Source: a virus. Taken from it: 64,000 bases of DNA. This document shows, piece after piece, positions 39,347 through 63,305 of this stretch. The stretch spans positions 62,001 through 126,000 of the IMG/VR virus record IMGVR_UViG_3300032053_000011; one strand, given 5' to 3'. The position numbers and the translations under genes were made by a program. The notes beneath the pieces are model-generated. The model ran no database searches. It saw only the letters and a list, made by a program, of their open reading frames with translations, and had not been told where the DNA came from. The first letter of the stretch is position 1. Each line of letters starts with the position of its first letter.

Positions 39347-39537
39347 CGTCCGAGCGTCATCCCCATGGACATGGCGCCCCGGAGTGAGCTGGCCTCGCCG
39401 CTGAAGACCTCGGTGCCATCCTTGAGTGCCCAGACACGAAATCGCTCATGGCCAACCTGCGTCGCAACGACGACGTAGGGACCCGATTCGTAGCGATCCA
39501 TCAGCTTTGATCTCGCCTTTCGGCTTTGGCTGTTCAT
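39343..39537 (-). CDS. Small basic unknown protein
   Basis: A 64-residue protein (MNSQSRKARSKLMDRYESGPYVVVATQVGHERFRVWAL). It reads as a small beta domain after a basic arm. Its stop overlaps the next start (ATGA). Five bases separate it from the gene upstream. No family recognised. Confidence 0.6.
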   Translation of the reverse strand: MNSQSRKARSKLMDRYESGPYVVVATQVGHERFRVWALKDGTEVFSGEASSLRGAMSMGMTLGR

Positions 39538-39542
39538 GTCTT

Positions 39543-40681: not shown

Positions 40682-40731
40682 GTGACGGATCCTTTGGTTG
40701 GGCGCCAGCGGTGTTGCTGACGTTGGGTAGG

Positions 40732-40759
40732 TATATATGCACGGGCCGTGCGGTGTCAA
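40732..40759 (-). promoter_or_regulatory. Promoter with palindrome operator in spacer, RNB operon
   Basis: On the minus strand TTGACA, 16 bases, TATATA (or 17 bases and ATATAC), the strongest-looking promoter of the window. GCACGGGCCGTGC (40739-40751) fills the spacer and is identical to the copy at 35841. A leader of about 45 bases with a good Shine-Dalgarno follows. Confidence 0.65.
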
Positions 40760-43842: not shown

Positions 43843-43962
43843 CGTCCCAGACTGCTCGCTTCCACGCCAGAATGGTAGCGGTGACGGAACCGCCCCGGGC
43901 GCGTATCATGCGCGCGCCGCCGTTGACGCAGACCATACGACCGTGTTCAGCATGGTGTCGCG

Positions 43963-45175: not shown

Positions 45176-46162
45176 ATGGGTGCTGACGCCGCCGCCTCCA
45201 GCTCTGCTGCTCCTGCATTCATGCCGCTGTTCCCCGAGGTTCCGGTCGACGCGTGCGCGTTCATCGAACTGTTCGGGATCTCGACGCGCGGCAAAGGCGA
45301 GGAGGACCTGTGGCTGATCGACAAGATCAAGCCCGCCTCCATCGAGCAGGACATCACCGATCAGTATGGAGGTGGCCGCTTTCAGCTCGGCGCCGTCGCC
45401 CCTGATGCCGCCGCGGGCGGCAAGAAGCGTTACGTGATGGAGCGGCAGCTCGCGCTGGTAGGCGAGGAGCGCTGGCGCTCGCTGGTACCGCAACTCCGCG
45501 AAGAATCAGAGAGAAAGGCGCGAGAAGCCAACATGAGCCGAGGATATCAGCCGCCCGCACCGGGAGCCCCCGCCGCAGGGTATCCCCCAGGTTACCCGCA
45601 GCAGGCCGGTGGCTATCCACCGGCGGGCTACGGTCCGCCGGGGTATCCGCCCGGCGGCTATCCACCGGCGGGCTATCCGCCCGCGGGGTATCCACCTGCC
45701 GGATACGGCGGCGGACAGGCCGCGCCGAACCGCCCGGACGAGTTCGAACGGACGCTGAACAATACGAAGGCGCTCACCACCCTGATTCAGGGTTCCGGGT
45801 CGCAGCACACCAGCAACGACCAATCACAGATCCAGTGGCTTCAGGGAGAACTGAACCGCAAGAACGGCGAGATCGAACAGATCCGTGGGACGCACCGTGA
45901 TCAGTTGGCCCAGCGCGATGCCGAGGTCTTCAAGCTGCGCAACGACTTCCTCACCCTCCAGGGCGAGCTGTTCCAGATGCGCGCCGAGCGCGCCGCGGGA
46001 GTTCGTCCCGGCGAAGCGCCGTCGATGGCCGGTCAGGTTGGCGTCGCCGCCGTCCAGGCAATGATCCCCAAGCTCATGGACAACCCCGCCATCGGACGTC
46101 TGATCGGCAGCCTCGCCACCTCGATGGGCGCGCCGCCTGCGGGCACGAGTGGTAGCGGCTGA
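45176..46162 (+). CDS. GYPPAG-repeat protein with coiled coil
   Basis: A 328-residue protein. Residues 1-110 are a mixed domain (MPLFPEVPVDACAFIELFGISTRGKGEEDLW). Residues 118-180 are a Gly/Pro/Tyr-rich region with GYPPAG-type repeats (GYPPAGYPPAGYPPAGY), as in proteins that phase-separate or bind surfaces. Residues 205-265 form a coiled coil (QIQWLQGELNRKNGEIEQIRGTHRDQLAQRDAEVFKLRNDF), with a short hydrophobic C-terminal helix. TACCTT ends six bases before the ATG. A scaffold or assembly role is possible. Confidence 0.65.
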   Translation: MGADAAASSSAAPAFMPLFPEVPVDACAFIELFGISTRGKGEEDLWLIDKIKPASIEQDITDQYGGGRFQLGAVAPDAAAGGKKRYVMERQLALVGEERWRSLVPQLREESERKAREANMSRGYQPPAPGAPAAGYPPGYPQQAGGYPPAGYGPPGYPPGGYPPAGYPPAGYPPAGYGGGQAAPNRPDEFERTLNNTKALTTLIQGSGSQHTSNDQSQIQWLQGELNRKNGEIEQIRGTHRDQLAQRDAEVFKLRNDFLTLQGELFQMRAERAAGVRPGEAPSMAGQVGVAAVQAMIPKLMDNPAIGRLIGSLATSMGAPPAGTSGSG

Positions 46163-46170
46163 GGGCTGAG

Positions 46171-46530
46171 GTGAGTGATCCGCTCGTTCCCGCCACGACT
46201 TGGGGCGAGGTCGTAGGGCGCGTACTGATCAGCACGCGCAATTCGATCTCGATGACCCAGGCCGAGATGGCACGTAGAGTCGGCCTCAGCAAGGGCGCAT
46301 GGTCGCGGATCGAACATGGCTCGAGAGCCTTCAGGATCGACCAACTCGAGAACGCAGCGCGCGCCATGGGCACCACGTCCGATGATATCCTGCGCCTCGC
46401 TCGGCTCGTTGCCGAACATCTCAGAGCGCGGGGCATTCGCGTAGAGACGGCACGCGAACTCACCGTTGGTCGCGTGGGGATCGACGGCAGTGCCCTCGCG
46501 ACGCTGGCCGATCAAGTCATGAACTCGTAG
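46171..46530 (+). CDS. XRE-family HTH regulator
   Basis: A 119-residue protein from a GTG at 46171. SMTQAEMARRVGLSKGAWSRIEHGSRAFRID (about 27-57) is a typical Cro/CI-type helix-turn-helix: the MTQAEMA helix, Gly turn, recognition helix SKGAWSRIE. The rest is helical and may mediate dimerisation. It precedes the tRNA-Met gene. Target unknown. Confidence 0.8.
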   Translation: MSDPLVPATTWGEVVGRVLISTRNSISMTQAEMARRVGLSKGAWSRIEHGSRAFRIDQLENAARAMGTTSDDILRLARLVAEHLRARGIRVETARELTVGRVGIDGSALATLADQVMNS

Positions 46531-46536
46531 CAGTGG

Positions 46537-46565
46537 TTGACGCCGATGCGCTAGGACGGCATTGT
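46537..46565 (+). promoter_or_regulatory. Promoter of tRNA-Met
   Basis: TTGACG, 17 bases, CATTGT, five bases before the tRNA 5' end. The spacer contains GCGCTAGG, a partial match to the GCTAG operator seen at other promoters. Confidence 0.45.
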
Positions 46566-46570
46566 ACTCG

Positions 46571-46645
46571 TACGAGCGGGGGGTGGAGTCATCCTGCCGG
46601 TCTCATAAGCCGGACAACTGGGCGCGACTCCCAGGCTCGGAACCA
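46571..46645 (+). tRNA. tRNA-Met(CAU)
   Basis: A 75-base cloverleaf. Acceptor TACGAGC/GCTCGGA (A2-G71 mismatch); D-stem GGGG/TCCT with two wobble pairs and a short 8-base loop; anticodon stem CCGGT/GCCGG around CTCATAA with CAT at 46604-46606; four-base variable loop; T-stem CTGGG/CCCAG around CGCGACT; discriminator A and encoded CCA. Position 1-72 is a T-A pair, so it is probably an elongator. The T-loop has G at the position normally T55, as does the tRNA-Arg-like gene at 28.7 kb. A strong terminator follows. Confidence 0.8.
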
Positions 46646-46651
46646 CACACC

Positions 46652-46690
46652 CAGAACGCCTCGGCATCCAATCGATGCCGAGGCGTTCTG
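46652..46690. terminator. Long perfect hairpin between tRNA-Met and the leftward gene
   Basis: A 17-bp perfect stem (46652-46668 and 46674-46690) with a 5-base loop, CAATC. It lies seven bases after the tRNA CCA and two bases after the stop of the leftward gene, so it can stop transcription from both sides. No long U-tract is present on either side. Confidence 0.75.
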
Positions 46691-46692
46691 CT

Positions 46693-46995
46693 TCAGCGCC
46701 GATAGCCGGGGCCGGGATGCTCTGCCGGATTCCACGGAAGAGCGACGCGAGCGGGAGCAGCCGGGTCCAATGCTGGGCCGCTCTTGGCCGACATCGAATA
46801 CTGGACCGTGTAACCCTCCCGCACGAGCTCGCGCGGAGTGATCTGGATCCCGTGCTTCGCGAACTCCGCAATCAACTGATGTGCGAACACCAGCGCATTA
46901 CGAAGGTCGGGTTCGCCGATTGGCTCATCTCGATTGGCGCGTCCAATGGCCTCGCAAACCGCGTCGGCGAGTGGCTGAAGGTGTTGAGGGATCAT
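46693..46995 (-). CDS. Small unknown protein, leaderless start
   Basis: A 100-residue protein (MIPQHLQPLADAVCEAIGRANRDEPIGEPDLRNALVFAHQLIAEF). The first 60 residues are helical; the C-terminal part is Pro/Ala-rich. Its promoter TTTCCA-N17-TACCGT lies seven bases upstream of the ATG, so leaderless initiation is likely. No family recognised. Confidence 0.65.
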   Translation of the reverse strand: MIPQHLQPLADAVCEAIGRANRDEPIGEPDLRNALVFAHQLIAEFAKHGIQITPRELVREGYTVQYSMSAKSGPALDPAAPARVALPWNPAEHPGPGYRR

Positions 46996-47002
46996 GCCGA
47001 CA

Positions 47003-47031
47003 ACGGTACCAGGACCATGTCTGCGTGGAAA
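47003..47031 (-). promoter_or_regulatory. Promoter, leaderless type
   Basis: On the minus strand TTTCCA, 17 bases, TACCGT, then seven bases to the ATG at 46995. Its -35 lies about 35 bases from the divergent promoter at 47065. Confidence 0.5.
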
Positions 47032-47064
47032 CATGATCTGGACCGACTGCTGCCTGCGTTGCGC

Positions 47065-47093
47065 TTGACGCGCGCTAGCACCAAGGCTACGGT
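47065..47093 (+). promoter_or_regulatory. Promoter with GCTAGCAC spacer element
   Basis: TTGACG, 17 bases, TACGGT, ten bases before the ATG at 47104. The spacer contains CGCGCTAGCAC, the element also present at 16.17 and 54.84 kb. Confidence 0.55.
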
Positions 47094-47103
47094 CCATTCT
47101 AAT

Positions 47104-47397
47104 ATGGCGAAATCATCGAAGACCCGGACCCCGCCGCGTCGGCCCGCGCGTGTCCTGTTTGTGCGCGTTCCCGAAGAAACACTCGCATGGCTGGACGATC
47201 TCGCCGCCGTACGTGAAACCGCGACGGGATTGCCGGTGAATCGCTCGGACGTGGTACGGCTGTTGATCGGTGAGGCGAAGAAAGCCGCCATGCCGACCGA
47301 GTCAGCGGAAACGCTGGCAGCGCTCTCTTCGGTCTCGAAGAAACCGAAGAGCAAGGTCGCCAAGAATGGCAGCAAGGCTCGTCACGCGACCGGATAG
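47104..47397 (+). CDS. Ribbon-helix-helix-like regulator
   Basis: A 97-residue protein. After a basic N-terminus (MAKSSKTRTPPRRPA) comes RVLFVRVPEETLAWLDDLAAVRETATGLPVNRSDVVRLLIGEA, a ribbon-helix-helix-like fold: an N-terminal strand and two helices. The C-terminal tail is Lys-rich. Its own promoter carries the GCTAGCAC element, so it is a candidate for the protein that binds there. Autoregulation is inferred. Confidence 0.65.
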   Translation: MAKSSKTRTPPRRPARVLFVRVPEETLAWLDDLAAVRETATGLPVNRSDVVRLLIGEAKKAAMPTESAETLAALSSVSKKPKSKVAKNGSKARHATG

Positions 47398-47409
47398 AGC
47401 TGGAATTCC

Positions 47410-47754
47410 ATGGCCAAGACGCACGTCTCTACGAGGGTGGCTGTGCGAGAAGAGCGGAGGCTCACGAAGCGAGCCCGCGCAATCATGCGGTTGATGGTCG
47501 AGCCGAAGGACGGCGACGATGGCCAGTTGGTTGGCGAGTCAGGCCAGTGGTGGGTCGATCTCGAGCGAACGTCGTGGTCTGTCGTCCGCCAGCTTCTGAA
47601 GCTCTGCCTGATCCGGCTGGAGTACGAAGACAATCGCGGCAACTACCAGCAGTATGCCGCGACGGATGAAGCTCGGAAGATTCTCGACGATCCTAGCTAT
47701 GTGACGATGATCGAGCGCGCAAAAGCGACCGGAAAGCCGGTGTACGCGTTCTGA
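47410..47754 (+). CDS. Winged-helix-like protein
   Basis: A 114-residue protein. Helices RRLTKRARAIMRLMV, SWSVVRQLLKLCLIRLEYED and a following beta-hairpin (YQQYAATDEARKIL) fit a winged-helix domain in which VVRQLLKLCLIR is the recognition helix. It follows the RHH gene after 12 bases and is probably cotranscribed with it. No close family is recognised. Confidence 0.55.
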   Translation: MAKTHVSTRVAVREERRLTKRARAIMRLMVEPKDGDDGQLVGESGQWWVDLERTSWSVVRQLLKLCLIRLEYEDNRGNYQQYAATDEARKILDDPSYVTMIERAKATGKPVYAF

Positions 47755-47759
47755 CGTCG

Positions 47760-48239
47760 TCAGTGATGTGGTCCGGGGCCGGGATGCGGACCTGGATGCG
47801 GGCCAGGGCCAGGACCCGGATGCGGGCCCGGCCCGGGATGTCCGGGATGCAGCGGGAAGTGCGCGGGCCGACCCTGCCAGAAATGATACGGCGCGTACTG
47901 CCGGGTGTACGCGTTGACGAGAAAGGTCTCGCTGCTCGGGTCGGCGAAGTAGAACGGGTGGAGGACGATCGGGTACACCGCATTCGGTGGGATCAGCAGG
48001 TCCTCGAGCCCGGTCACTTCGATCATGAAGCGGTGGGACTCCCAGACGCCGCCGACCTGAGAGACGTTGACCTCGGCCATCTGCCGTCCGCCTTCCGGCG
48101 CGAGGATCGTGACGTCGACGAGCCACCAGCCTGTTCCTTCCACGCCAAAGTGTGAGGACACGAGCTGTCGCACGTCCCGTGCGAAGTCATTCCAGGAGCG
48201 CGGCAGCGGATCGGTGCGGACCGTGATGAAGTCGCTCAT
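47760..48239 (-). CDS. Unknown protein with His/Pro/Gly-rich tail
   Basis: A 159-residue protein. The first 125 residues form a mixed domain (WWLVDVTILAPEGGRQMAEVNVSQVGGVWESHRFMIEV, LIPPNAVYPIVLHPFYF). The last 30 are repeats of PGPGPHP, which could chelate metal ions such as nickel or zinc. TACGAT ends six bases before the ATG, and its promoter faces that of the lipoprotein gene 28 bases away. Function unknown. Confidence 0.65.
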   Translation of the reverse strand: MSDFITVRTDPLPRSWNDFARDVRQLVSSHFGVEGTGWWLVDVTILAPEGGRQMAEVNVSQVGGVWESHRFMIEVTGLEDLLIPPNAVYPIVLHPFYFADPSSETFLVNAYTRQYAPYHFWQGRPAHFPLHPGHPGPGPHPGPGPGPHPGPHPGPGPHH

Positions 48240-48267
48240 CGGCCGATCGTACGCTAGGATGTTCACC

Positions 48268-48459
48268 ATGCTCAAACTTGCTGCTCTGCTCTCCATGCTC
48301 GCTCTCAGTGCTTGTGTGCCGCCCGCGGCCACTCCCGACGTCCTGGACGCCACCGCCGTGGAGGCATCGACGGTCGACGCCTCGGCCGAGGTGACCAGCG
48401 ACGAGCCCGCGCCGCGGCCCGACGGCGAGCTGCCGATGGATGCGCGCGTCGACTTCTGA
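48268..48459 (+). CDS. Small lipoprotein
   Basis: A 63-residue protein with a type II signal: MLKLAALLSMLALSAC, where LSAC is the lipobox. After the Cys the mature part is Asp/Glu/Val/Ala-rich (ATAVEASTVDASAEVTSDE) and ends in Asp-rich residues. TAGGAT ends seven bases before the ATG. An outer-membrane or periplasmic lipoprotein is expected. The lipoprotein at 57.2 kb has the same style of Asp/Val-rich mature region. Confidence 0.7.
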   Translation: MLKLAALLSMLALSACVPPAATPDVLDATAVEASTVDASAEVTSDEPAPRPDGELPMDARVDF

Positions 48460-48513
48460 GCGGCACTCTGCACGCAGGGTGACGGCGTCGCCGCGGGCGG
48501 CGATACTGCGCAA

Positions 48514-49170
48514 GTGCCCAAGCTGATCAAATGCCCGGAATGTGGACAGGCGTTGTCCGAACGGCGCATGCACGCTCACCGCGGGCTCCAGTGTCAGGTC
48601 GCTTGCGCAGAATCCAAGGCACGCGCCGAAGGACTCGATCGGCTCGACTCCGAATGGAGTGGCTGGCTGAACGAACTGTACGACACTGGCATGCGAATCG
48701 AGCGACGACCGACGGGTCTACCGGATCTCCATGGCTTCGGCGCCTACGAGCGCGCGGTTGAGGAATGGTGGACCGAGGCTTGGATCGCCAGGATCGCATC
48801 CTGGGAAGGGCTGTATCAGAACCAGAAGCGGGCTGCGGTTCGGCGTCTCATCGCAGACCCGGCCATGCTTGCCGATGCACGCGCACACATCGGGGCCTGT
48901 GCCTCGACCGTATTTACCGAGCAGGCAACAGTGCACCTGATCTCGGCGACCGGCGCCGAGGTGATGATGAAGGAACAGCCCGGCCTCCGGTGGATTCTGG
49001 TGTTCGACGATGACGGCCAGATCGTCGACTCTTTCCTTGGTGCACGCATGGGGAAGTACGAGCATGAGGGAAAGTTTCCCCCGTTGCACATCGTGCTCGC
49101 AGTGATGCCAGTGATTGAACAGTTCGCTCGGTGCAACGCGATGTTCAACTGGCTTGCAGGGACGCGATGA
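48514..49170 (+). CDS. Zinc-finger array protein A
   Basis: A 218-residue protein from a GTG at 48514, first of the array. An N-terminal finger (CPECGQALSERRMHAHRGLQC) with Cys-Cys-His-Cys ligands is followed by the shared core: EEWWTEAWIARIASWEGLYQNQKRAAVRRLIADPAM (about 75-110) and the C-terminal FPPLHIVLAVMPVIEQFARCNAMFNWLAG. The central third is beta strands with VFDDDGQIVD. GATACT ends six bases before the start. Function unknown; likely protein-protein or nucleic-acid contact via the finger. Confidence 0.75.
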   Translation: MPKLIKCPECGQALSERRMHAHRGLQCQVACAESKARAEGLDRLDSEWSGWLNELYDTGMRIERRPTGLPDLHGFGAYERAVEEWWTEAWIARIASWEGLYQNQKRAAVRRLIADPAMLADARAHIGACASTVFTEQATVHLISATGAEVMMKEQPGLRWILVFDDDGQIVDSFLGARMGKYEHEGKFPPLHIVLAVMPVIEQFARCNAMFNWLAGTR

Positions 49171-49952
49171 GCGCGCGCGTACGCTGCGAGGTCTGCGACG
49201 TGAACGTCGCATACAAAGGCTTGCGAGCGCATGAGCAGACGACCGGGCATCAGGAAGCGGCGCCGTTGTTCCTCGCATCGCGCGCGGCAGAAGCACAGGC
49301 ACACAATGACGGCCTCGACCGTCTGATCGATTTCGACTTCGCGCCGTACGACCAGGATGCTTTGTCGACTGCGAGCGCAGGCCATGATCGGCTGACGCCG
49401 GTCTTCGATGCCCTTGGTATTCCAGTTCTCGCGTTGCCAACCGGATTCCATCGCGGCACTCGATACAGCCACCGCTATGACGAGTTGTGGACCGTGTGGT
49501 GGGCAGCGAATGTCGCTAACTGGAAAGAGGTCGAGTTCAAGACGCGTGTCCGCGCGCTCGAGCGTCTTGCGGCCGAGCCGAACCTCCGCGAGTACGTGCG
49601 CGACTGGCCCCCCGTCATCGGCATGAGCGTCCGCCTCGTTGGCCTGGAATTCTCAAGCGGGCACGCCATCGCCGGAACTGCGCGAAGGGCCGGGATGCAA
49701 GTCTGGGTCAGCCAACCCGGGTCAGCGCATCTGATGATCTTGCTGGATCCGTCGGACAAGTGGACGTCCGTGGAATCCTGGGACCTCACTTTCAGCCCAC
49801 ACGGAGAGATCCTGGAGTTCCGGTCGAGCCATTGGCCACAGCACGAAGAGATGCCGATGCCGCCGCTGAACGTGATGATCGAAACTCAGGGTGCGATCGA
49901 GAAGTTCGCCCGGTGCAGTGCCACGATCCGTTGGCTGGCAGGTGGCACGTGA
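49167..49952 (+). CDS. Zinc-finger array protein B
   Basis: A 261-residue protein; ATG overlaps the stop of A. Finger VRCEVCDVNVAYKGLRAHEQTTGH with two Cys and two His, classical C2H2 spacing. Core DELWTVWWAANVANWKEVEFKTRVRALERLAAEPNLREYV and C-terminus MPPLNVMIETQGAIEKFARCSATIRWLAG. It is the longest of the set owing to inserted segments around YDQDALSTASAGHDRL. Function unknown. Confidence 0.75.
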   Translation: MSARVRCEVCDVNVAYKGLRAHEQTTGHQEAAPLFLASRAAEAQAHNDGLDRLIDFDFAPYDQDALSTASAGHDRLTPVFDALGIPVLALPTGFHRGTRYSHRYDELWTVWWAANVANWKEVEFKTRVRALERLAAEPNLREYVRDWPPVIGMSVRLVGLEFSSGHAIAGTARRAGMQVWVSQPGSAHLMILLDPSDKWTSVESWDLTFSPHGEILEFRSSHWPQHEEMPMPPLNVMIETQGAIEKFARCSATIRWLAGGT

Positions 49953-50644
49953 GCGCGACGTACTGCGAGGTCTGTGGCATGAAGGTCGCGCCCCATGGGA
50001 TGTGGGCTCACAAACACACCGCGGAGCATCTGAGGGCCGTGCCAGTGGTGCAGGCAGCTCAGGCTGAGACCGAGAATGCCGCTGCCGCTGGGCTGGTCCG
50101 ACTATATTACGCCGCCGAATTCTACGATCATCTCGCTGCAATCGGCGTCCGAACAGAGATGCTACCAACGTCGGTCGAGCACGAATCGGCGCGCGGCAGA
50201 GTTCGGCCACTACGTCAGCCATGGACAGAAGCCTGGGCTGGAGCAATCGCCAATTGGGATGCTGTGGATACCAAGACTCGCAAGCGCGCGCTGGCACGTG
50301 TGGCAGCCGATCCAGCGTTGCGTGCATCCGTGCCCGAGTGTCAGCAGGACGTAGACTTGCCGGGCGCTCGCGTGTCGCTCAAGAGCTTCGAGTGGAATCC
50401 TAGCGCGATGGCAACAATCTCGACTGAGCGCGAGCACGGACGGATCGCCGGTAGCAGCATGTGGAACCTCTACTTCGATGAAGTCGGACACATCCTGGAG
50501 ATCACGCGATGTGAGATCCCGCATCTGCGAATCGCAACGCACGACGCTGCGCCACCATTGCACCTGATGGTTCAGGCAGTGGACATCATCGAGCACTTCG
50601 CGCGCTGCAACGCTGCCATCCGTTGGCTGGCAGGTGCGCCGTGA
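49949..50644 (+). CDS. Zinc-finger array protein C
   Basis: A 231-residue protein from a GTG overlapping the previous stop. Finger TYCEVCGMKVAPHGMWAHKHTAEH, core RQPWTEAWAGAIANWDAVDTKTRKRALARVAADPALRASV, and C-terminus APPLHLMVQAVDIIEHFARCNAAIRWLAG. It is most similar to D. Function unknown. Confidence 0.75.
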   Translation: MSATYCEVCGMKVAPHGMWAHKHTAEHLRAVPVVQAAQAETENAAAAGLVRLYYAAEFYDHLAAIGVRTEMLPTSVEHESARGRVRPLRQPWTEAWAGAIANWDAVDTKTRKRALARVAADPALRASVPECQQDVDLPGARVSLKSFEWNPSAMATISTEREHGRIAGSSMWNLYFDEVGHILEITRCEIPHLRIATHDAAPPLHLMVQAVDIIEHFARCNAAIRWLAGAP

Positions 50645-51384
50645 GCGCGACGTACTGCGAGGTCTGCAAGACGAAGGTCATGTCCGGCGGCATGCGTGCG
50701 CACGAGCGTTCAGCGGGGCATCAACGCACGGCGCCGCTGGCGGCCGAGGCGAGACTTGCGACAGAGCAGGCGATCGCTCAGGGACTCGTTCGAATGACCG
50801 AACACGACTTCTCGAACTGGGATACTGGGACGCCATTTCTCGATTCCATTGGAGTGCGCACGGAACGGTTGCTCACCTCGTATGCGCGCAGCCGGAACCA
50901 TAGCTGGAAGTATCCAGAATGGTGGACCGAGGCCTGGGCAGCACCGATCGCTGACTGGCGAGGTCTCGACGTCGCCACTCGCGAACGGGCGCTCGCGCGA
51001 GTGGCTGCTGATCCGAGTCTGCGAGCCTACGTGCCGCACTGCCCGCTTGTCTTGGAATTCCAGGGTGTAACAGTGACCATCAACCACAAGCGCTACGTGC
51101 AAGATATGGCGATGTTGTCTGATGAACACGCGGCGGGCGCAGACGGGCTATCCATGGCAACAATCTCGATCTCGGGGCACGGACGCGGCAACACGAACAT
51201 GTGGCACGTCCACTTCGACGGCACCGGGAGCATCGTGGATATCGTCCCGTTCCGTGTCCCACATCTCGAGATCAACACGCCGGAGGATGCCCCGCCGCTG
51301 AGCGTGATGGTCGAGGCTCAGGGCGCGATCGAGCACTTCGCGCGCTGCAATGCTGCGATCCGATGGCTGGCAAGCGATGCATGA
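50641..51384 (+). CDS. Zinc-finger array protein D
   Basis: A 247-residue protein from a GTG overlapping the previous stop. Finger TYCEVCKTKVMSGGMRAHERSAGH, core PEWWTEAWAAPIADWRGLDVATRERALARVAADPSLRAYV, and C-terminus APPLSVMVEAQGAIEHFARCNAAIRWLAS. Near-identical start to C (SATYCEVC) points to recent duplication. Function unknown. Confidence 0.75.
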   Translation: MSATYCEVCKTKVMSGGMRAHERSAGHQRTAPLAAEARLATEQAIAQGLVRMTEHDFSNWDTGTPFLDSIGVRTERLLTSYARSRNHSWKYPEWWTEAWAAPIADWRGLDVATRERALARVAADPSLRAYVPHCPLVLEFQGVTVTINHKRYVQDMAMLSDEHAAGADGLSMATISISGHGRGNTNMWHVHFDGTGSIVDIVPFRVPHLEINTPEDAPPLSVMVEAQGAIEHFARCNAAIRWLASDA

Positions 51385-51745
51385 AGAGAGCTTCATCATC
51401 GGCGAGCATGTGATCGGTTTGCGTTGGCTCGAACGCAAGGGCGAGAGCGCGTTCTATAGAGGCGCTGGCCTCTTCTGGTTTCCTGGGTTCCCCATCGGTG
51501 TGCTCGGTGGTCGCTACTTTTCTTACCAGCGGGGAACCTTCCACCGGGACGAATTGTTCCCAGAGGGCCACGGAGTGGGCAGGAACTTCGATGATTTCAA
51601 GTCGTTGTCGGCGCACCATCAGAAAGCAGTGCGGCCGATGCTCCGTAGATTCTACGAGCTCGTCGGGGTAACGCCCGAGGCTCTCCAGATGATGGGGCTC
51701 GCAGGCTACATCGTACTCGAACAGATGGTTAAGGGTGCTGCATGA
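51377..51745 (+). CDS. Short unrelated protein inside the array
   Basis: A 122-residue protein overlapping D by eight bases. It lacks the core and finger and has FWFPGFPIGVLGGRYFSYQRGTFH and a C-terminal helix (EALQMMGLAGYIVLEQMVKG). Weak resemblance to the protein at 28.8 kb. It may be a co-partner or a degenerate member. Function unknown. Confidence 0.6.
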   Translation: MHEESFIIGEHVIGLRWLERKGESAFYRGAGLFWFPGFPIGVLGGRYFSYQRGTFHRDELFPEGHGVGRNFDDFKSLSAHHQKAVRPMLRRFYELVGVTPEALQMMGLAGYIVLEQMVKGAA

Positions 51746-52302
51746 GCCGGAAGACCGAAGACTTCGAGAAATCCTACTACGCGGCGGAGCGTTTCGCTCC
51801 GCTGCTGAGGGAGCTTGGAATCCCCGTCATCATGTTGCGCGATCCGGCGAACGCCGGACGTGGATATGACGATCGGCCCGTGCCACATGTCCCGTTCTGG
51901 GCAGTCCGAGTCGTCAACTGGATGGGGTTGAGCGTGGCGGAGATAGAGACAGCGTTGCGGCGGTTGGCCGCCGAGCCAGCCTTGCGGGCGACCGTGCGCG
52001 GCCTCGTCCAGGTCATGCGAACGGATACGGTCACAGTCGCTCTTCAGAGCACGTCATTCATGCGAGATCGAGAGGGTAGGTTCCCGACAGAGATGTTCGC
52101 GCAGGTGTGGACCAATGATCGGAACATTGGAGAGTGGGAGGTCCACTACGATCGCACCGGTGCGATTCTCAAGATTGGGCCGCGCTCGAGAGCGGGGGGG
52201 GAGATTGTCCCCATGCCGCTGCATATTGCGGTCGTCGTCCAGCAGGCCATCGAGGAGTTCGTGCGGGGCGACGCCGTGATGCACGCCTTGGGCGCGTCGT
52301 GA
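51742..52302 (+). CDS. Array paralogue F, no zinc finger
   Basis: A 186-residue protein (ATGA overlap). It has the core PHVPFWAVRVVNWMGLSVAEIETALRRLAAEPALRATV and the C-terminal MPLHIAVVVQQAIEEFVRGDAVMHALG but no Cys finger; the N-terminus is a helix (TEDFEKSYYAAERFAPLL). It groups with G. Function unknown. Confidence 0.7.
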   Translation: MSRKTEDFEKSYYAAERFAPLLRELGIPVIMLRDPANAGRGYDDRPVPHVPFWAVRVVNWMGLSVAEIETALRRLAAEPALRATVRGLVQVMRTDTVTVALQSTSFMRDREGRFPTEMFAQVWTNDRNIGEWEVHYDRTGAILKIGPRSRAGGEIVPMPLHIAVVVQQAIEEFVRGDAVMHALGAS

Positions 52303-52865
52303 ACCGCTCCGAAAGATTGATCGAGTGCTATGGGGCACGACAACACGAGGCCCTGCTCACAGAGCTTGGAGTGCCGATCACCTGGAAGGCGCCGCGCATC
52401 GTCGGAGCGGGGAAGTCCGAGCTTCCGGCGCCATACATCGCTGCCTGGGCAGGCGTGATCATCTACTGGATTGGTCTCGACGACGAAGAGCGTGAACGCG
52501 TGCTCCGCCGCGTGGCCGCCGATCCAGCACTGCGGGCAATCGTTGGAGATCTCACGCAACGATTCGGCACCGACGATATTCGAGTCACTCTCAATCGCGT
52601 CCATCGGTCGGACTGGCGTTCGCATGAGCGGCTGCATAGCGATGGCTCAGGAGAGGCGTCCGTCGGTTTTGCGGATGGCCCATGGGTCGATGAACGATGG
52701 TTGGTGAGCTACGATTCGACCGGCGTCATCCTCAATATCCTGCAACACGATGACGCGCAGGTGGAAGAGATGCCATTGCACATCGCGGTCATCGTTCAGG
52801 CGGCCATCGAGGAGTTCATTCGCGGCGGCTTGCTGATGCATCAGCTCGGAGCGAAGCAGCCGTGA
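52299..52865 (+). CDS. Array paralogue G, no zinc finger
   Basis: A 188-residue protein from a GTG overlapping the previous stop. Core PAPYIAAWAGVIIYWIGLDDEERERVLRRVAADPALRAIV and C-terminus EEMPLHIAVIVQAAIEEFIRGGLLMHQLG. Like F it lacks the finger and begins with a helical segment (RLIECYGARQHEALLTELG). Function unknown. Confidence 0.7.
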   Translation: MNRSERLIECYGARQHEALLTELGVPITWKAPRIVGAGKSELPAPYIAAWAGVIIYWIGLDDEERERVLRRVAADPALRAIVGDLTQRFGTDDIRVTLNRVHRSDWRSHERLHSDGSGEASVGFADGPWVDERWLVSYDSTGVILNILQHDDAQVEEMPLHIAVIVQAAIEEFIRGGLLMHQLGAKQP

Positions 52866-53500
52866 GCGACCACTCTGTCGAGTGCCCGATCTGTCACGAG
52901 CGCGTCGCCAGTTGGCGTGGGATGACGGCACATCAACGCGGCTTCCGCTGCATGGCCGCCCGCGCGACGAGCGAGGCGATCGCGGAGGGTCTCGGCCGTG
53001 TCGATCCACGCGACTTGGCCTCAGTCGGACTTGCATGCCAATACCGTTTCACCCGCCGCGAGAGAACAGCCCCGAGCGAATGCTGGACCGAGGCATGGAT
53101 CGCCGGGATCCTGAACTGGGTCGCGCTTCGTCGCGTGGTGCGGAGAGCTGCGGTGCGACATGTTCTGCGCGACCCGTCATTGCGAACGCGGGTACCGATC
53201 TGCCCGCCGAATACCTTCTACTTCGACGACAGCAGGATGCAGATCTGGCTCGGTCGCTCGAACGAACTTGGCTTCAAGGAGAACGATGCGCGGATGCATA
53301 TCCCGGTACCGAGTCCGCCGACCGGCGGTCCGAACTATGACGCATGGGATCTCATCTTCGATGACGATGGGTACATCGCATTCCCCGATGCGGTGGTCTA
53401 TCCACCGATGTTCGTCGTGCTCCAGGCACAGTCGGTCACGATGCAATGGGCCGCCTGCTCGGCGGCCATCCGCGCGCTGGCCGAGGGCGAGATACTGTGA
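52862..53500 (+). CDS. Zinc-finger array protein H
   Basis: A 212-residue protein from a GTG overlapping the previous stop. Finger VECPICHERVASWRGMTAHQRGFRC (Cys-Cys-His-Cys, like A) and core ECWTEAWIAGILNWVALRRVVRRAAVRHVLRDPSLRTRV. The C-terminus is diverged (MFVVLQAQSVTMQWAACSAAIRALAEG) but keeps the helix. Function unknown. Confidence 0.7.
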   Translation: MSDHSVECPICHERVASWRGMTAHQRGFRCMAARATSEAIAEGLGRVDPRDLASVGLACQYRFTRRERTAPSECWTEAWIAGILNWVALRRVVRRAAVRHVLRDPSLRTRVPICPPNTFYFDDSRMQIWLGRSNELGFKENDARMHIPVPSPPTGGPNYDAWDLIFDDDGYIAFPDAVVYPPMFVVLQAQSVTMQWAACSAAIRALAEGEIL

Positions 53501-54096
53501 CGCCGTCGATCGCACTGATCGAGACGTACGTCTGGTTCAGCGCCGGTCCGATGCCGCTCGAGCTCGCGATTCAGCTCACGCCAGAGCGGCTCCACAAGCT
53601 CTGGCACCGCACTACGAACTGGCGAGCGATGCTGCGCATCCTGCTCGTCACGCGATTGCCACTAGCGCGGCTCGCGGTAGTCGAGGCTGTTGCTCTCGCG
53701 CTCGAGAAAGAGCCGCGAGTATCCAATCCAATCGACGCGCAAGGTTCGTTGTCGCTCCTGCGGATGAGAGCGGCTGAGTTGTCGGTTGGGATTCCGCTCC
53801 AGCGTGCGTCGGAGGTCGTCACGGCGCGCGCGTTCGCCAACTCACAAGCGTCATTCGATGCCCGGTTCCGCAAGCTCACGAACTCTGGACTCGTATGGGA
53901 TGCGATCTACGATGCTCTGAGAAGTCTGCTTGAGAGTGATGACCTAGTGTTCGGTCAGCCGAAGTACGCCGCCGACCGTGCCATGTGTGCGGCGGAGAAA
54001 GCTGGCGTTACCGGCGGCGAGATCCTGCATTGGCTTCGACCACTGGGGCCTCCGACGCTCGAGGAAATCGTGGCTGCGAGCTTTCAAGGCATCTAG
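53497..54096 (+). CDS. Unknown protein closing the array operon
   Basis: A 199-residue protein from a GTG overlapping the previous stop. It is helical and lacks the array core, with AELSVGIPLQRASEVVTARAFANSQAS and EKAGVTGGEILHWLRPLGPPTLEEIV. Its last segment resembles a small helix bundle. It ends the coupled chain of nine genes; about 100 bases follow before the HNH gene. Function unknown. Confidence 0.65.
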   Translation: MTPSIALIETYVWFSAGPMPLELAIQLTPERLHKLWHRTTNWRAMLRILLVTRLPLARLAVVEAVALALEKEPRVSNPIDAQGSLSLLRMRAAELSVGIPLQRASEVVTARAFANSQASFDARFRKLTNSGLVWDAIYDALRSLLESDDLVFGQPKYAADRAMCAAEKAGVTGGEILHWLRPLGPPTLEEIVAASFQGI

Positions 54097-54196: not shown

Positions 54197-54829
54197 ATGA
54201 CGGAGCGCAAAACGTATGGCGCATGGACTCGTCTCGGCCGCGAGAAACGCGAGAAACGACGCAGCGGCCGTGGCAACACGCTGTTCTGGGAATGCGAGTG
54301 CCGATGCGGGACCGTGAAGTGGGTGCGGGCATCGCAATTGAAGAACAACACATCAACCTGCTGCGGGTGCATCCGGCCTATCAAACATGGCAAGTGCGAC
54401 ACGCCCGAATACCATATCTGGGCGACCATGCTCGCGCGCTGCCGGAACCCATCATCGGACAGTTATTATCTGTACGGGGAACAGGGCGTTACCGTCTGCA
54501 CCGACTGGCTGCGCTTCGAGAATTTTCTTCGTGATATGGGTCCTCGGCCATCTCCTGAACTGTCAATCGAGAGGAAGAACAACGACGGCAACTATGAGTT
54601 GCTGAACTGCCGCTGGGCGACCGCTGGAGAGCAGTCACGAAATACGTGCAGGACAAAGCTGTTCACCATTGCCGGGAAGACACTGTGTATGAAGGACTGG
54701 GCCAAGGATCAGGGGATGGTCTATACCACGCTGCAAGGACGATTACGGCGAGGTCTCTCCATCGAGGCCGCTCTGAATCTGCCGCTTCAAGTACACAAAC
54801 CACGCCGGAACGTGGCACCAGTGCCATAG
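54197..54829 (+). CDS. HNH-type homing-endonuclease-like protein
   Basis: A 210-residue protein. CECRCGTVKWVRASQLKNNTSTCCGCI gives a Cys cluster (zinc ligands), then EYHIWATMLARCRNPSSDSYYLYGEQGVTVCTDWLRFENFLRDMG and SIERKNNDGNYELLNCRWATAGEQSRN, the order of phage HNH/AP2-type endonucleases (the Asn/Asp/Asn part of the HNH core). The tail (KTLCMKDWAKDQGMVYTTLQGRLRRGLSIEAAL) resembles a NUMOD-type DNA-binding helix. It probably nicks or cuts DNA. TTGCCA-N18-TAGGCT lies upstream, six bases before the start. Confidence 0.8.
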   Translation: MTERKTYGAWTRLGREKREKRRSGRGNTLFWECECRCGTVKWVRASQLKNNTSTCCGCIRPIKHGKCDTPEYHIWATMLARCRNPSSDSYYLYGEQGVTVCTDWLRFENFLRDMGPRPSPELSIERKNNDGNYELLNCRWATAGEQSRNTCRTKLFTIAGKTLCMKDWAKDQGMVYTTLQGRLRRGLSIEAALNLPLQVHKPRRNVAPVP

Positions 54830-54868: not shown

Positions 54869-56443
54869 ATGCTCAACGCGGCGGCCTTGGAAGCACGGAT
54901 TGGAACGATGCTGGCTGGCAAGTATCGGCTCGATCGAATTCTTGGCATGGGTGGCATGGGCGCGGTCTTCGACGCCGAGAACACATGGCTCACACGGCGG
55001 GTTGCCGTCAAGGTTATGCACCCCGACGTGAGTCGTGATCAGGCGCTCGTGGAGCGTTTCCTACGCGAAGCAAGAGCCGCCGCACGTGTGCATCATCCGA
55101 ATGTCGTCGACGTGCTCGACTTGGGGCAGGATGCCGATGGGACTCTTTTCATCGTGCAGGAATTCTTGCCGGGGACCGACCTCGAGCATCTGATGCGAGA
55201 TCGTGGGCCGCTTCCTCCGCGTGAAGCGCTCGAGATCATCGTGCCCGTGATGAGCGCGTTGATTGCTGCTCACCGCAGCGGCATCCTGCACCGCGACGTG
55301 AAGCCCGCCAACGTGCTCCTCGCGAATTCACCAGGAGGTGGTGTTGTCCCCAAGCTTCTGGACTTTGGTATCGCGAAGGTACAGGAGTCCGTCGCATCGA
55401 AGGACCTCACACAGACCGGCGTCGCACTCGGCACAGTGCATTACTTCTCGCCCGAGCAAGCCGCGGGCGCGCGCGACGTTGATGCGCAGACCGACGTTTG
55501 GGCCCTGGCAGTGATGTTGTACGAGATGCTCTCGGGACGCTGCCCCTGGGAAGGCGAGACGGTCAACCAGATCTTCGCAGCCGTGTTGACCGCAGAAGTG
55601 CCGCCGATTCAGTCGATCGCGCCGAACGTGCCCGATGCACTCGCGGCGGTGATCATGCGTGCGCTCGAGCGCGATCGGACGGTGCGCTTCCGTTCGATGC
55701 AGGAATTCCTTGGTGCTCTGCTCGACTGCCCGACGTTCGAGAAGGAGAGCTGGCACACCACTCTGCGGGTCACCCATCAGGCAGCCACTACATCGGTCGA
55801 CGGCCCAATCGAGATGGAGCGCGAACGCCGTGGGACGGACGTGCTGCAAGTGATGCCGAGCAAGGTAACGCCGCCACGCATGACTACGTTCGGCAGGACG
55901 GCGCGCGAGATCCTCGTCCCGTCGGACAACCATCTCGATACATCATCGCTCAGCGGATTCGTCGTGATGGCCGGGTTCCTGATGCTCACCGCATTCGGGA
56001 TGACCGCAATCGGTATTGCGTTTGGGATCGGTGGACTTGGCTCCCATGCCTCCGTCCCCGCGCCGCGTCCGGCTGCGACGTTCGAAGCGGTCTTCGATGT
56101 CCCCGGCGCCACGATCGAGATCGACGGTGTGCCGATGGGCACCGGTCATGTCGCCGTGGTGCTGCCGGTTGATGGCCGCAGCCATGTCGCGCGCTGCTAC
56201 GCCCCCGGACGTGTCGAACGTCGCGTGGAGTTTCGCAACCAGCTTCCGCCGGTTCGCATCGCGCTCGAGCCAATTGCGGTTCCGCCTCTCGTCGTGGAAC
56301 CACCGACGGCAGCGCCCACCATCATTCGCCATGTCCGGGCTGCGGCGCCAGTCGCGGTCCATCCGACGCCTCCACCGCCTGCCGCGGCTCATTCCGCAAG
56401 CCGCTCGCGCAATGGCGCACCGATCCTGGGGCTCGATGAATAA
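54869..56443 (+). CDS. Ser/Thr protein kinase with transmembrane helix and PEGA-like domain
   Basis: A 524-residue Hanks-type kinase. Gly loop GMGGMGAVF (about 26-34), the VAVK Lys near 49, HRDVKPAN at 141-148, DFG at 165, SPEQ in place of APE and the YEMLSGRCPW region follow in order. The catalytic domain ends near 290. After a linker comes a membrane helix near 364-386 (FVVMAGFLMLTAFGMTAIGIAF) and a PEGA-like beta domain (ATIEIDGVPMGTGHVAVVLP) outside the cytoplasm. It would phosphorylate Ser/Thr of target proteins in response to a surface signal. This architecture is typical of Myxococcota. A leaderless promoter precedes it. Confidence 0.92.
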   Translation: MLNAAALEARIGTMLAGKYRLDRILGMGGMGAVFDAENTWLTRRVAVKVMHPDVSRDQALVERFLREARAAARVHHPNVVDVLDLGQDADGTLFIVQEFLPGTDLEHLMRDRGPLPPREALEIIVPVMSALIAAHRSGILHRDVKPANVLLANSPGGGVVPKLLDFGIAKVQESVASKDLTQTGVALGTVHYFSPEQAAGARDVDAQTDVWALAVMLYEMLSGRCPWEGETVNQIFAAVLTAEVPPIQSIAPNVPDALAAVIMRALERDRTVRFRSMQEFLGALLDCPTFEKESWHTTLRVTHQAATTSVDGPIEMERERRGTDVLQVMPSKVTPPRMTTFGRTAREILVPSDNHLDTSSLSGFVVMAGFLMLTAFGMTAIGIAFGIGGLGSHASVPAPRPAATFEAVFDVPGATIEIDGVPMGTGHVAVVLPVDGRSHVARCYAPGRVERRVEFRNQLPPVRIALEPIAVPPLVVEPPTAAPTIIRHVRAAAPVAVHPTPPPPAAAHSASRSRNGAPILGLDE

Positions 56444-58497: not shown

Positions 58498-60246
58498 ATG
58501 CCCCCATCACTCTTCGGCAAGAGCACGCCCGCGCCGCTTCGTCGCACCGTCCGTCCCGCGGGTCAGGTCGAGACCCCGCGCGAGACGCTGAAACGAAAGC
58601 TTGGCGGGGTCGAGGTGCCGCTAGAGATGAGCGATGACGAGGTCAGTCGTCTGCTCGCGAATGATGACGCCCGCGCCGCGTGGCTGGCCGCCCGGACCTC
58701 GGGGCCTGCGGTGGCTCGGCAGACTCTGATGCTCCGGCTCGATGTCCACGACCTCCCGCCGGAACTCAGCGATGCCGATGTGACTGCGCTGCTGGCAATG
58801 GATGGCCCGACACGCACGACGTGGTTCCGCGCCCAGCCCTTTTGCACGCCGCCCGCGGAGGGCTTCGCCTCCGAAGCGCTGCGGCAGGCGTGGGCGGACA
58901 GTCATCGCTGGTGCCCGCCTCCCGCCCTCAGCACTGTCCGGGCACCCGGCGGCGCGCCTCTCATGGAAGTGCCGGATCTGCTCTCTCCCGGTGACGCGAA
59001 CCGCGTCCTCGCCAACAGCAACGTCACCTTCTCGTGGAAGACGGTTCGCGGCGCAGCGAGTTACGAGGTGCGGGTCTGCACCGACGCCGCCATGACCCAG
59101 GGATGCCTGCCCGGTGGCGCGGCACAGATCACAGGCCTGAACACGACCTTCGCTGTTCCCGCGGGCGACTACTTCTGGAACGTGCGCGCCATCGGCGCTG
59201 ACGGCACCGTGGGGCCGGTCTCCGCGACACGCCATCTGGCGTCGGCCGCGCCTGCCGCCTCACCAAGCCTCGCGGCTCCCACCCTCGCAGGGCCGACCGA
59301 TGCGGCTCTCGTCGTCGCGAATGGAACCGTGGCGTTCTCCTGGAATTCCGTGGCGAATGCAACCGGCTACGAGGTCCAGGTCTGCACGGATGCCGCCATG
59401 ACCCAGGGGTGTTTGCAGAGCGGCAACGGTCGGACGGCAGCGCCGGACGCGACGATGCTTCTCTTCGCGGTGCCCGCAGGCGATTACTTCTGGCGCGTGC
59501 GCGCGATCGCCGCCGACGGCACGCTCGGTCCGGCATCGGAAGTCCGCCATCTCGCGTCGGCCGCGCCGTCCGCGACGACGACGACCCCGCCCGGGCAACC
59601 CCTGCCACCGCCGACGCTGATTGCGCCTGCGGACATGACACATGCAGATCCCGACACCCTCGTGACCTTCTCTTGGGCGCTCGTGCCCGGTGCCGCAGGC
59701 CATGAATTGGTGGTCTGTACCGATCCCGGCATGACGGTCGGTTGCCTAACCGGACAGGGACGTCTGCCTGCGCCGCAGAGCACGCTCACCGTGAGTATTC
59801 CAGCGGGAACCTACTACTGGACTGTGCGCGGCATCGCCGAAGATGGCACCGTCGGTCACTCCGCTGGAGTGCGTCGGTTGCTCGGCGCGTCCGTGGCAGC
59901 ACCGTTTCAGACGTCGGTGGAAGCCTTGACCTCGGCGCCAGCGCCGACGACGCCCGCGGCGCCACAGGTGGCGGCGAAGGCCTCGGCAGTGCCATGGATC
60001 CTCGGCGCTGCCGCGCTGGCGGGCGCTGCATGGTGGCTCTGGCCGAAGAGTGATGGCCCGGGTCCGCATTCGAACCCGTCGCATTCGTTCATCGGCAGTC
60101 GGGTGACCAAGCTTGGACGGGGCGCCGGGCGCCGCGGCACGATCCTCTCGCTCGAGGGGTCCGGCCCAATGATGAACGCGACTGTCCGCTGGGAAGACGG
60201 CTCGGTGGGGACTGCCCACGGGAAAGATCTCGGACTGGTCGGCTGA
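58498..60246 (+). CDS. Large surface-type membrane protein with FN3-like modules
   Basis: A 582-residue protein. The N-terminal region contains two short helical units (EMSDDEVSRLLANDDARAAW and ELSDADVTALLAMDGPTRTTW). Residues about 165-460 hold three FN3-like modules, each with SYEVRVCTDAAMTQGCL-type strand and VPAGDYFWNVRAIGADGTVGP-type strand. A Pro/Ala linker leads to a membrane helix near 499-515 (PWILGAAALAGAAWWLW) and a C-terminal beta domain (SRVTKLGRGAGRRGTILSL, VRWEDGSVGTAHG) like SH3/KOW modules. Adhesive or virion-surface roles are possible. Confidence 0.7.
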   Translation: MPPSLFGKSTPAPLRRTVRPAGQVETPRETLKRKLGGVEVPLEMSDDEVSRLLANDDARAAWLAARTSGPAVARQTLMLRLDVHDLPPELSDADVTALLAMDGPTRTTWFRAQPFCTPPAEGFASEALRQAWADSHRWCPPPALSTVRAPGGAPLMEVPDLLSPGDANRVLANSNVTFSWKTVRGAASYEVRVCTDAAMTQGCLPGGAAQITGLNTTFAVPAGDYFWNVRAIGADGTVGPVSATRHLASAAPAASPSLAAPTLAGPTDAALVVANGTVAFSWNSVANATGYEVQVCTDAAMTQGCLQSGNGRTAAPDATMLLFAVPAGDYFWRVRAIAADGTLGPASEVRHLASAAPSATTTTPPGQPLPPPTLIAPADMTHADPDTLVTFSWALVPGAAGHELVVCTDPGMTVGCLTGQGRLPAPQSTLTVSIPAGTYYWTVRGIAEDGTVGHSAGVRRLLGASVAAPFQTSVEALTSAPAPTTPAAPQVAAKASAVPWILGAAALAGAAWWLWPKSDGPGPHSNPSHSFIGSRVTKLGRGAGRRGTILSLEGSGPMMNATVRWEDGSVGTAHGKDLGLVG

Positions 60247-60309
60247 GGCAAGAGTCGCGCAATCTGCGTGAAAGTTGACCGTTCTGCGGTGTCGCCAGAC
60301 GATGGGCGC

Positions 60310-61959
60310 ATGGAACCCTGCAAGCCCTGTGGGCGCGGTCGCCTCTTTCCTTCGACCGCGGGGACCTCGCCAGCGGGCATCTTGGCTCCGGGACTTGGAA
60401 ACAGGGCCGGTATCGTATTCCCTGGTCAGAAGAGACTCGGACCACAGCCGTCGGGACAGATCGTCAGCCGCCGTGAGCAACTGCGGGCCAGCCTGAACGT
60501 CACCGATCTGCCCGAGCAGAACAAGGACAACGGCCGAGGCGTCGTCTTCAACGATGCCCATGTGCAATGGCTGCTCGTGATGCCGCTCGATCAGCGACGC
60601 GCGCAGTTTCTCCACGACTGGTGCACCCTGCCCGACGCAGGGTTCATCAACGAGGCCGCCCGAGCAGCCTGGGCGCGAAGCCATGTCTGGTGTGAAGCCC
60701 CGGCGAGCGACACCGTGCGCGATGTCTCGCGCGCTGCCCTCAAGCTGATGCTCGGATTCGGCAATCAGAAGCTTCCGTCGGAGCTGTCGGATGCCATGGC
60801 GCGCGAGCTGATCGTGATGGGCCGTGATGCAGCAGCCCTGGAATTCCAGCGTCGATTCTGTGTGACGCCCCCGGGCGGATTCGCGACCGATGCGGACATG
60901 GCCGCCTGGATGACGGACCATGATTGGTGCACCGTTCCCGCGATCCGGGACGCGCGGCCCGGCGCACCCACGCCGTTGAGCGAAGCCGATCAGTACCTGC
61001 ATACGATGGGGATGGGGTGTCCGGCCTGGGCGCGAATCACCGACGCAGCCGCTCGGACGCTTCGGCTCCGTTCGTCGAATCCCGATCTCTCTCCCGAGGA
61101 AGCCGACCGTCGGCGCCGGGTCATCGATGCGCAGTGCGGCATCGTCTCCACGCGAGCGGCGTTCGTGGGCGCGACAACGCTTCTGCCCTCGAGCACGAGC
61201 ACTTTCACTCTGGTCGGTGGTGGTGGTGCCAAAGGGGGAACTCCAGCAGCTTCGCCGCCACGGACCGGGCCGTTGCCAGCCCCGGTCTTGGGCAACCCGC
61301 TTGCGGGCGTCCCTGTGGTGGCGGATGCCGACGTGTCCTTCAACTGGGCAGCGGTGGATGGAGCGCAGAACTACGAGTTCCGTCTGTGTCTCGATGCCGA
61401 TCTCCAGCTCGGGTGCATCACGGGAACAGGTGGCGGCATGATGCTCACTGGCCTCTCGCTCACAATGCGAGTGCCAGCCGGTTCCTACTTCTGGTCCGTG
61501 CGCGCTACGGGCAGCGACGGAACGCCTGGAATTCTTGCCGAAGCGCGTGCTCTTCGGTCTGTGCAGGCCACGACCCAAGTACCGATTCCGGTGCAAACAC
61601 CGGCGACGCTCCTGGCGAGCCTCGGCCTGACATGCGACGAGTGGAGCGCACTCACCGCCGATGACCAGGGCACTCGGCTCGCTCTTCTCATTCCGCCATC
61701 ACGTTCTGGCGATCCATCAGAAGCCCCGAGAGCGAACCCGATCCCGGCGCAGATCGCCGCCATCAACGTCTACTGCCAGAACCAGTCCATGCTCGATGGC
61801 AGAGGCACAAATCAAGACGCTATACTCCGCCAGACGATGGCACCGCCTGCCGTCGTGCGCAGTAGCCCACTGGTCCCCGTGCTTCTCGTTGCAGGCGCGG
61901 TGGGCGTCGTCGGCCTCGGCTGGTGGATGTTGCGCGATCCGACCCCGGCGCATCGGTAG
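60310..61959 (+). CDS. Second large membrane protein with FN3-like module
   Basis: A 549-residue protein related to the previous one. Start ATG at 60310 follows TTGACC-N17-GACGAT by six bases; a GTG 42 bases upstream is the alternative. It repeats the helical-unit/Trp-Cys pattern (RRAQFLHDWCTLPDAGFINEAARAAWARSHVWC, twice more with variation) and has one FN3-like module (YEFRLCLDADLQLGCI...VPAGSYFWSVRATGSDGTPG). A C-terminal helix (VPVLLVAGAVGVVGLGWWML) anchors it. The conserved Trp/Cys motif 'DWCTxP' is shared with the previous gene. Confidence 0.7.
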   Translation: MEPCKPCGRGRLFPSTAGTSPAGILAPGLGNRAGIVFPGQKRLGPQPSGQIVSRREQLRASLNVTDLPEQNKDNGRGVVFNDAHVQWLLVMPLDQRRAQFLHDWCTLPDAGFINEAARAAWARSHVWCEAPASDTVRDVSRAALKLMLGFGNQKLPSELSDAMARELIVMGRDAAALEFQRRFCVTPPGGFATDADMAAWMTDHDWCTVPAIRDARPGAPTPLSEADQYLHTMGMGCPAWARITDAAARTLRLRSSNPDLSPEEADRRRRVIDAQCGIVSTRAAFVGATTLLPSSTSTFTLVGGGGAKGGTPAASPPRTGPLPAPVLGNPLAGVPVVADADVSFNWAAVDGAQNYEFRLCLDADLQLGCITGTGGGMMLTGLSLTMRVPAGSYFWSVRATGSDGTPGILAEARALRSVQATTQVPIPVQTPATLLASLGLTCDEWSALTADDQGTRLALLIPPSRSGDPSEAPRANPIPAQIAAINVYCQNQSMLDGRGTNQDAILRQTMAPPAVVRSSPLVPVLLVAGAVGVVGLGWWMLRDPTPAHR

Positions 61960-61964
61960 GTCCG

Positions 61965-62552: not shown

Positions 62553-62639
62553 CTGCGCCAGTGCGCCTGCACGAAAATAGACAGCGAAGAGTTCTCGGCC
62601 GAGAGTTGACATCCAGACTCCAACCACGAGGACGATCGC

Positions 62640-63294: not shown

Positions 63295-63305
63295 GGAGGC
63301 ATCTC

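What the first reader, a model, noticed from the sequence alone, without database searches (positions are those of the whole stretch)
48514..53500. Tandem array of seven zinc-finger/core paralogues in one coupled operon
Seven genes in an uninterrupted plus-strand chain share the core W(T)EAWAxxIxNW...RxAADPxLRxxV and a C-terminal IExFARCNAAIRWLAG-like helix. Genes A, B, C, D and H have an N-terminal C2H2/C2HC finger (for example CEVC...H...H); F and G do not. C and D have nearly identical starts, which indicates recent duplication, while the linker and central strands have diverged. This pattern (conserved fold, variable centre, copy expansion) is that of recognition proteins. I know of no described family with this core. 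The protein at 51377 and the helical protein at 53497 ride in the same operon.
Basis: partly seen in the sequence, partly recalled or inferred. Interest (0 to 1): 0.85.

Follow-up and report, generated by a model that had tools for sequence, protein, structure and literature searches.

The report
Seven-gene orphan paralogue array in virus
A 137-kb virus-like record, probably from a myxobacterial host, carries seven tandem genes for one old, still-conserved protein family, five with a likely zinc finger; no relative was found in any collection searched, which suggests a set of diversified binding proteins whose function is not known.

Summary
Genes A, B, C, D, F, G and H (48514-53500, +) are homologous: leave-one-out HMMs recover each at E 1e-26 to 1e-58, and no other copy exists in the 137.5-kb record. 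Five carry a CxxC...H...H/C finger-like N-terminus; F and G lack it. Gene ends overlap as ATGA/GTGA, so they are probably co-translated. C and D are not a recent duplication: they are 51% identical with saturated synonymous sites. Only 49 bp at the gene junctions are near-identical, and that stretch includes a Shine-Dalgarno-like site.

No usable Pfam, PHROGs, NCBIfam, PADLOC or PDB match was found, no relative in IMG/VR, GTDB, INPHARED, PLSDB or the Myxococcota genomes sampled, and no fold match for a fairly confident model (pTM 0.80). The coupled protein at 53497 belongs to a second, 18-gene family in the same record.

No invariant catalytic residues, near-neutral charge and length-variable loops suggest non-enzymatic binding proteins; 'recognition' is plausible but unproven. 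The closest precedent is the ~35-copy zinc-ribbon expansion of Bacillus phage G. This is a new orphan family and a new variant of a known kind.

The parts
48268..48462 (+). Small putative lipoprotein gene upstream of the array (63 aa, MLKLAALLSMLALSAC lipobox-like start); possible first gene of the unit, not a family member
   Evidence: translation; 51-base gap to gene A; no PHROG match
48514..49170 (+). Gene A, family 1, 218 aa, C2HC finger-like N-terminus
49167..49952 (+). Gene B, family 1, C2H2 finger-like N-terminus; ATGA overlap with A
49949..50644 (+). Gene C, family 1, C2H2 finger-like N-terminus; GTGA overlap with B
50641..51384 (+). Gene D, family 1, C2H2 finger-like N-terminus; GTGA overlap with C; modelled by AlphaFold2
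51377..51745 (+). Gene E, unrelated 122-aa protein, coupled (8-base overlap with D, ATGA overlap with F); weak C-terminal similarity to the protein at 28715-29197
51742..52302 (+). Gene F, family 1 core without finger
52299..52865 (+). Gene G, family 1 core without finger; GTGA overlap with F
52862..53500 (+). Gene H, family 1, C2HC finger-like N-terminus; GTGA overlap with G
53497..54096 (+). Gene I, member of the 18-gene helical family 2 of this record; GTGA overlap with H
49926..49974 (+). B/C gene junction, 46 of 49 bases identical to the C/D junction; contains SD-like GGCAGGTGG
50618..50666 (+). C/D gene junction, second copy of the same 49-base stretch
54197..54829 (+). HNH endonuclease-like gene that follows the operon (flank, not a family member)
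   Evidence: PHROGs phrog_374 HNH endonuclease E 1.4e-49

Best explanation
A multigene family apparently private to this element, formed by old tandem duplication and kept by protein-level selection. Its products are probably non-enzymatic binding (adaptor or decoy) proteins: a fixed scaffold (core helices, beta sheet, long C-terminal helix) that presents variable loops, with a zinc knuckle in five of seven. They are made together from one polycistronic message by stop-start coupling, alongside a helical protein from a second expanded family. The most likely use is interaction with different host proteins during infection or maintenance (host takeover or counter-defence), each copy having its own partner. 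Shown by computation: homology, copy number, coupled gene order, conserved core with variable loops, absence of known relatives. Inferred: zinc binding, absence of catalysis, partner binding, host-facing role.
For: Homology of all seven. The ten positions invariant in all seven are G, W, W, P, R, W, G, I, P, L: fold-type residues with no conserved catalytic set. Variability is concentrated in loops 149-171, 181-185, 205-219 and strand 172-180 of gene D, with lengths of 8-29 residues in loop 149-171. pI 5.3-7.0, against nucleic-acid binding by charge. NG86 dN is below dS in all pairs (C/D 0.43 against 1.40), although most pairs are saturated. ATGA/GTGA overlaps throughout. Gene I belongs to a second family of 18 copies in the record. 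A phage precedent for expansion of a small Zn-binding protein exists (Bacillus phage G, PMC7824862).
Against: No homologue outside the record, so no population variation, no partner and no phenotype can be read. Variable loops also arise by relaxed constraint. The operon is not near recognised anti-defence genes, and PADLOC finds nothing in it. The record has no recognised terminase or capsid gene, so even 'virus' is uncertain.
Confidence: 0.35

Rival explanations
1. The paralogues assemble with one another (and with gene I or E) into one hetero-oligomeric machine or virion substructure; copy number reflects subunit specialisation, and coupling keeps the stoichiometry.
For: Stop-start coupling of all genes; long conserved C-terminal helix and conserved core helices that could form the shared interface; old divergence with retention of every copy; candidate virion genes with TM segments lie 4-23 kb downstream.
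Against: Two members lack the finger entirely and length variation is large; no structural-protein match; no assembly prediction could be run.
Confidence: 0.25
2. They are nucleic-acid-binding regulators: the finger reads DNA or RNA and the variable part tunes specificity or effector binding.
For: CxxC...H...H/C N-termini, C-x2-C-x11-H-x5-H being close to the matrin/U1-like spacing (the comparison rests on my knowledge of those families); phage G zinc-ribbon copies were proposed as transcription factors or structural DNA-binding proteins (PMC7824862).
Against: One finger only, not basic (pI 5.3-7.0), finger below Pfam cut-offs, and F and G lack it.
Confidence: 0.2
3. Neutral or ratchet-like expansion of a dispensable gene by recombination between the repeated gene junctions, with no specialised function per copy.
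For: 49-base near-identical junctions at B/C and C/D; other families in the record are expanded too.
Against: All seven frames are intact after saturation of synonymous sites, and the core is conserved. The junction identity may instead reflect constraint on the ribosome-binding site: duplex energies -10.2 and -9.2 kcal/mol against a background 5% point of -7.1.
Confidence: 0.15

Closest known systems
Zinc-ribbon lineage-specific expansion in Bacillus phage G (~35 copies; PMC7824862)
   Same: Single-phage expansion of a small protein with a zinc-binding module, of undetermined function.
   Different: Zinc ribbon rather than CxxC-H-H/C finger; no sequence match of gene D, G or H to any INPHARED phage record; here the finger is dispensable (absent in F and G) and the shared part is an alpha/beta core with a C-terminal helix.
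C2H2 / matrin-U1-like zinc fingers (Pfam zf-C2H2, zf-C2H2_4)
   Same: Ligand order and spacing in B, C, D; weak zf-C2H2 hit in H.
   Different: Below Pfam cut-off; A and H are C2HC; the conserved unit of the family is the core, not the finger.
Multigene families of large eukaryotic DNA viruses (e.g. poxvirus accordion arrays, ASFV MGFs; from general knowledge)
   Same: Tandem, diverged, intact paralogues of host-interaction-like type.
   Different: No homology; host-interaction role not tested here; prokaryotic element.

Membership tests
zf-C2H2 (Pfam PF00096) | Profile match above gathering score | tested here: not met
   Best 15 bits (gene H) against cut-off 25.2
zf-C2H2 (Pfam PF00096) | C-x2-4-C-x12-H-x3-5-H ligand pattern | tested here: inconclusive
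   B, C, D C-x2-C-x11-H-x5-H; A and H end in Cys; F and G have none
zf-C2H2 (Pfam PF00096) | Bound zinc | not testable with these tools
   Needs metal analysis of purified protein
Any family in Pfam, PHROGs, NCBIfam or PADLOC | Significant profile match of the core | tested here: not met
   (only chance-level matches to fragments)
Any fold in PDB or BFVD | Foldseek match E <= 0.001 to the model of gene D | tested here: not met
   0 matches in either library; best E 0.27 (PDB) and 0.22 (BFVD); model pLDDT 83.4, pTM 0.80 from only 7 sequences
Bacillus phage G zinc-ribbon expansion | Sequence similarity | tested here: not met
   tblastn of D, H and G against INPHARED phages at E 0.1: no match; not compared with the named protein directly
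Known anti-phage defence proteins | PADLOC profile match | tested here: not met
   A, D, G, H, E and I: none

The most novel reading that the evidence does not exclude
A new protein fold used as a diversified binding scaffold: a virus-encoded set of paralogous adaptors, each neutralising or recruiting a different host factor, and working together with a second 18-copy helical family coupled to the same operon.
Probability: 0.2. Interest if true: 0.75.

Novelty: new variant of a known kind. Interest (0 to 1): 0.45.

Why it matters
Expanded private gene families of unknown function in viruses of bacteria are a place to look for undiscovered host-takeover and counter-defence factors. This record holds at least two such families side by side, one with no detectable sequence or fold relative, and both sit in one translationally coupled operon, which makes the functional link directly testable.

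Tried and rejected
Recent duplication of C and D: rejected, synonymous codons saturated. Common origin of family 1 and the helical family through the shared PLHxAV motif: not supported, hhalign probability 0.7%. Relatives by related phages: the AAA ATPase at 34234 found five IMG/VR contigs, but only a three-gene module is shared and neither family occurs in them. Candidate capsid protein and ParB-like protein as handles to relatives: nothing. Weak hits in Myxococcota genomes (E 0.001-0.05 per genome among 379) judged chance: partial coverage, some with internal stops. Diversity-generating mechanism: repeats in the array are coding paralogy only. Promoters and terminators: no more than in shuffled sequence. 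Fold search of the helical family: low-confidence model (pLDDT 68.5), no match.

Full report
The window is bases 62001-126000 of a 137,514-base IMG/VR record. The record has phage-like DNA metabolism: RecE/YqaJ, RecT, DnaB, Gp88, a DUF5131 protein and HNH endonucleases. No terminase (Terminase_6N) was detected, and no capsid, portal or terminase family is among the listed PHROG matches (in one search only 25 of 43 matched families are shown). Its Ser/Thr kinase at 54869 is closest to Myxococcota proteins, 44-47% identical, so a myxobacterial host is likely but not proven.

Observation. Genes A (48514-49170), B (49167-49952), C (49949-50644), D (50641-51384), F (51742-52302), G (52299-52865) and H (52862-53500) form one family. 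Pairwise identity is 18-51%. Leave-one-out HMM E-values are 1.2e-26 to 2.1e-58. Removing whole subgroups (F+G, A+H, B+C+D) still recovers them at 4e-18 or better, while the best unrelated ORF is at E 0.13. The profile finds no eighth copy in the record. The tree groups F with G (bootstrap 100) and separates A and H from the rest (96). Gene E (51377-51745) is unrelated and sits between D and F.

Coupling. Every family junction and H/I is a 4-base ATGA or GTGA overlap; D/E overlaps by 8 bases. The last codons of each gene lie where the next gene's ribosome-binding site would be. For B/C and C/D this is a strong Shine-Dalgarno-like sequence (duplex -10.2 and -9.2 kcal/mol; background 5% point -7.1), weaker elsewhere. 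This offers a plain reason why 49 bases at these two junctions are 46/49 identical while the gene bodies are saturated at synonymous positions. The region was picked after inspection, so its significance is only suggestive; local gene conversion is an alternative.

Protein anatomy. Five members begin with a CxxC-x11/12-H-x4/5-H/C element; F and G start directly in the core. AlphaFold2 on the seven-row alignment gives pLDDT 83.4 and pTM 0.80: finger, helix, beta hairpin, core helices (the WTEAWA...AADPxLR motif), further beta strands and a 25-residue C-terminal helix. Conservation follows this: 0.44 and 0.45 mean pairwise identity in the core helices and the C-terminal helix, 0.10-0.15 in loops 149-171, 181-185, 205-219 and strand 172-180; loop 149-171 ranges from 8 to 29 residues. 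Positions invariant in all seven are G, W, P, R, I and L only. pI is 5.3-7.0.

Relatives. None in Pfam, PHROGs, NCBIfam or PADLOC above chance; none in PDB by profile; no Foldseek match in PDB or BFVD. Pattern-plus-tblastn scans of IMG/VR with five different queries and of GTDB genomes found none, nor did tblastn of phage records and plasmids, nor HMM searches of 379 and 318 Myxococcota genomes. The pattern scans need an exact short peptide match and the genome searches score only a few first-look candidates per genome, so distant relatives can be missed. Metagenome contigs could not be searched.

Second family. Most lie on the minus strand at record positions 1522-14779, with others at 23462, 34950 and 35483. 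The family has an N-terminal PLHLAV...AW motif and a C-terminal GPPTxxEI motif with a variable helical middle. A third family of five genes (record 45883-48495 and window 15460-16194) looks related to it: hhalign probability 69%, E 4e-5. Families 1 and 2 are not detectably related.

Function. Absence of a conserved catalytic set, near-neutral charge, conserved scaffold and variable loops favour binding proteins; coupling and the shared operon with gene I favour joint action. I commit, at 0.35, to diversified adaptor or decoy proteins aimed at host partners, with a hetero-oligomeric machine (0.25), nucleic-acid-binding regulators (0.2) and low-function expansion (0.15) as rivals. Nothing here demonstrates a partner.

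Known context. Bacillus phage G has about 35 copies of a zinc ribbon, proposed as transcription factors or structural DNA-binding proteins (PMC7824862). Private expansions of small Zn-binding proteins in one phage are therefore a known kind; this family, its finger-free members, its unmatched fold and its coupling to a second expanded family are the new variant.

Noticed in passing
record G000:1522-14779 (L009), 23462-24265, 34950-36118; window 53497-54096: Eighteen-gene helical paralogue family, most of it in one minus-strand run near the left end of the record; no database match for the members tested.
   Followed up: partly
record G000:45883-48495 (L011:5883-8495) and window 15460-16194: Five-gene paralogue family (PPLAWAVxxSxGGQxDPVxAAW) that profile comparison links to the 18-gene family.
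   Followed up: partly
L013:10586-11575 and upstream genes; window 58498-64000: Run of proteins with a C-terminal transmembrane segment, peptidoglycan-binding-like and transglutaminase domains, ending in a strongly coding 330-aa orphan that could be a capsid protein; no terminase found. Possibly a tailless virus or a plasmid.
   Followed up: partly
window 34234-40759 (-): AAA ATPase plus two further genes (39543, 39881) conserved as a module in five otherwise unrelated IMG/VR contigs, 51-70% identical for the ATPase.
   Followed up: partly
window 22660-24069 and 24080-24940: DnaB helicase followed by a second, shorter DnaB-like copy lacking the N-terminal domain.
   Followed up: no
window 54869-56443: Host-type Ser/Thr kinase gene in the virus record, followed by a gene typical of Myxococcota.
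   Followed up: partly
L010:18664-19755: Full-length beta-1,3-glucanase (GH64, Pfam E 8e-62) encoded by the record.
   Followed up: no
window 43869-43938 (-): tRNA-Ile (GAT) gene, the only tRNA gene in the window.
   Followed up: no
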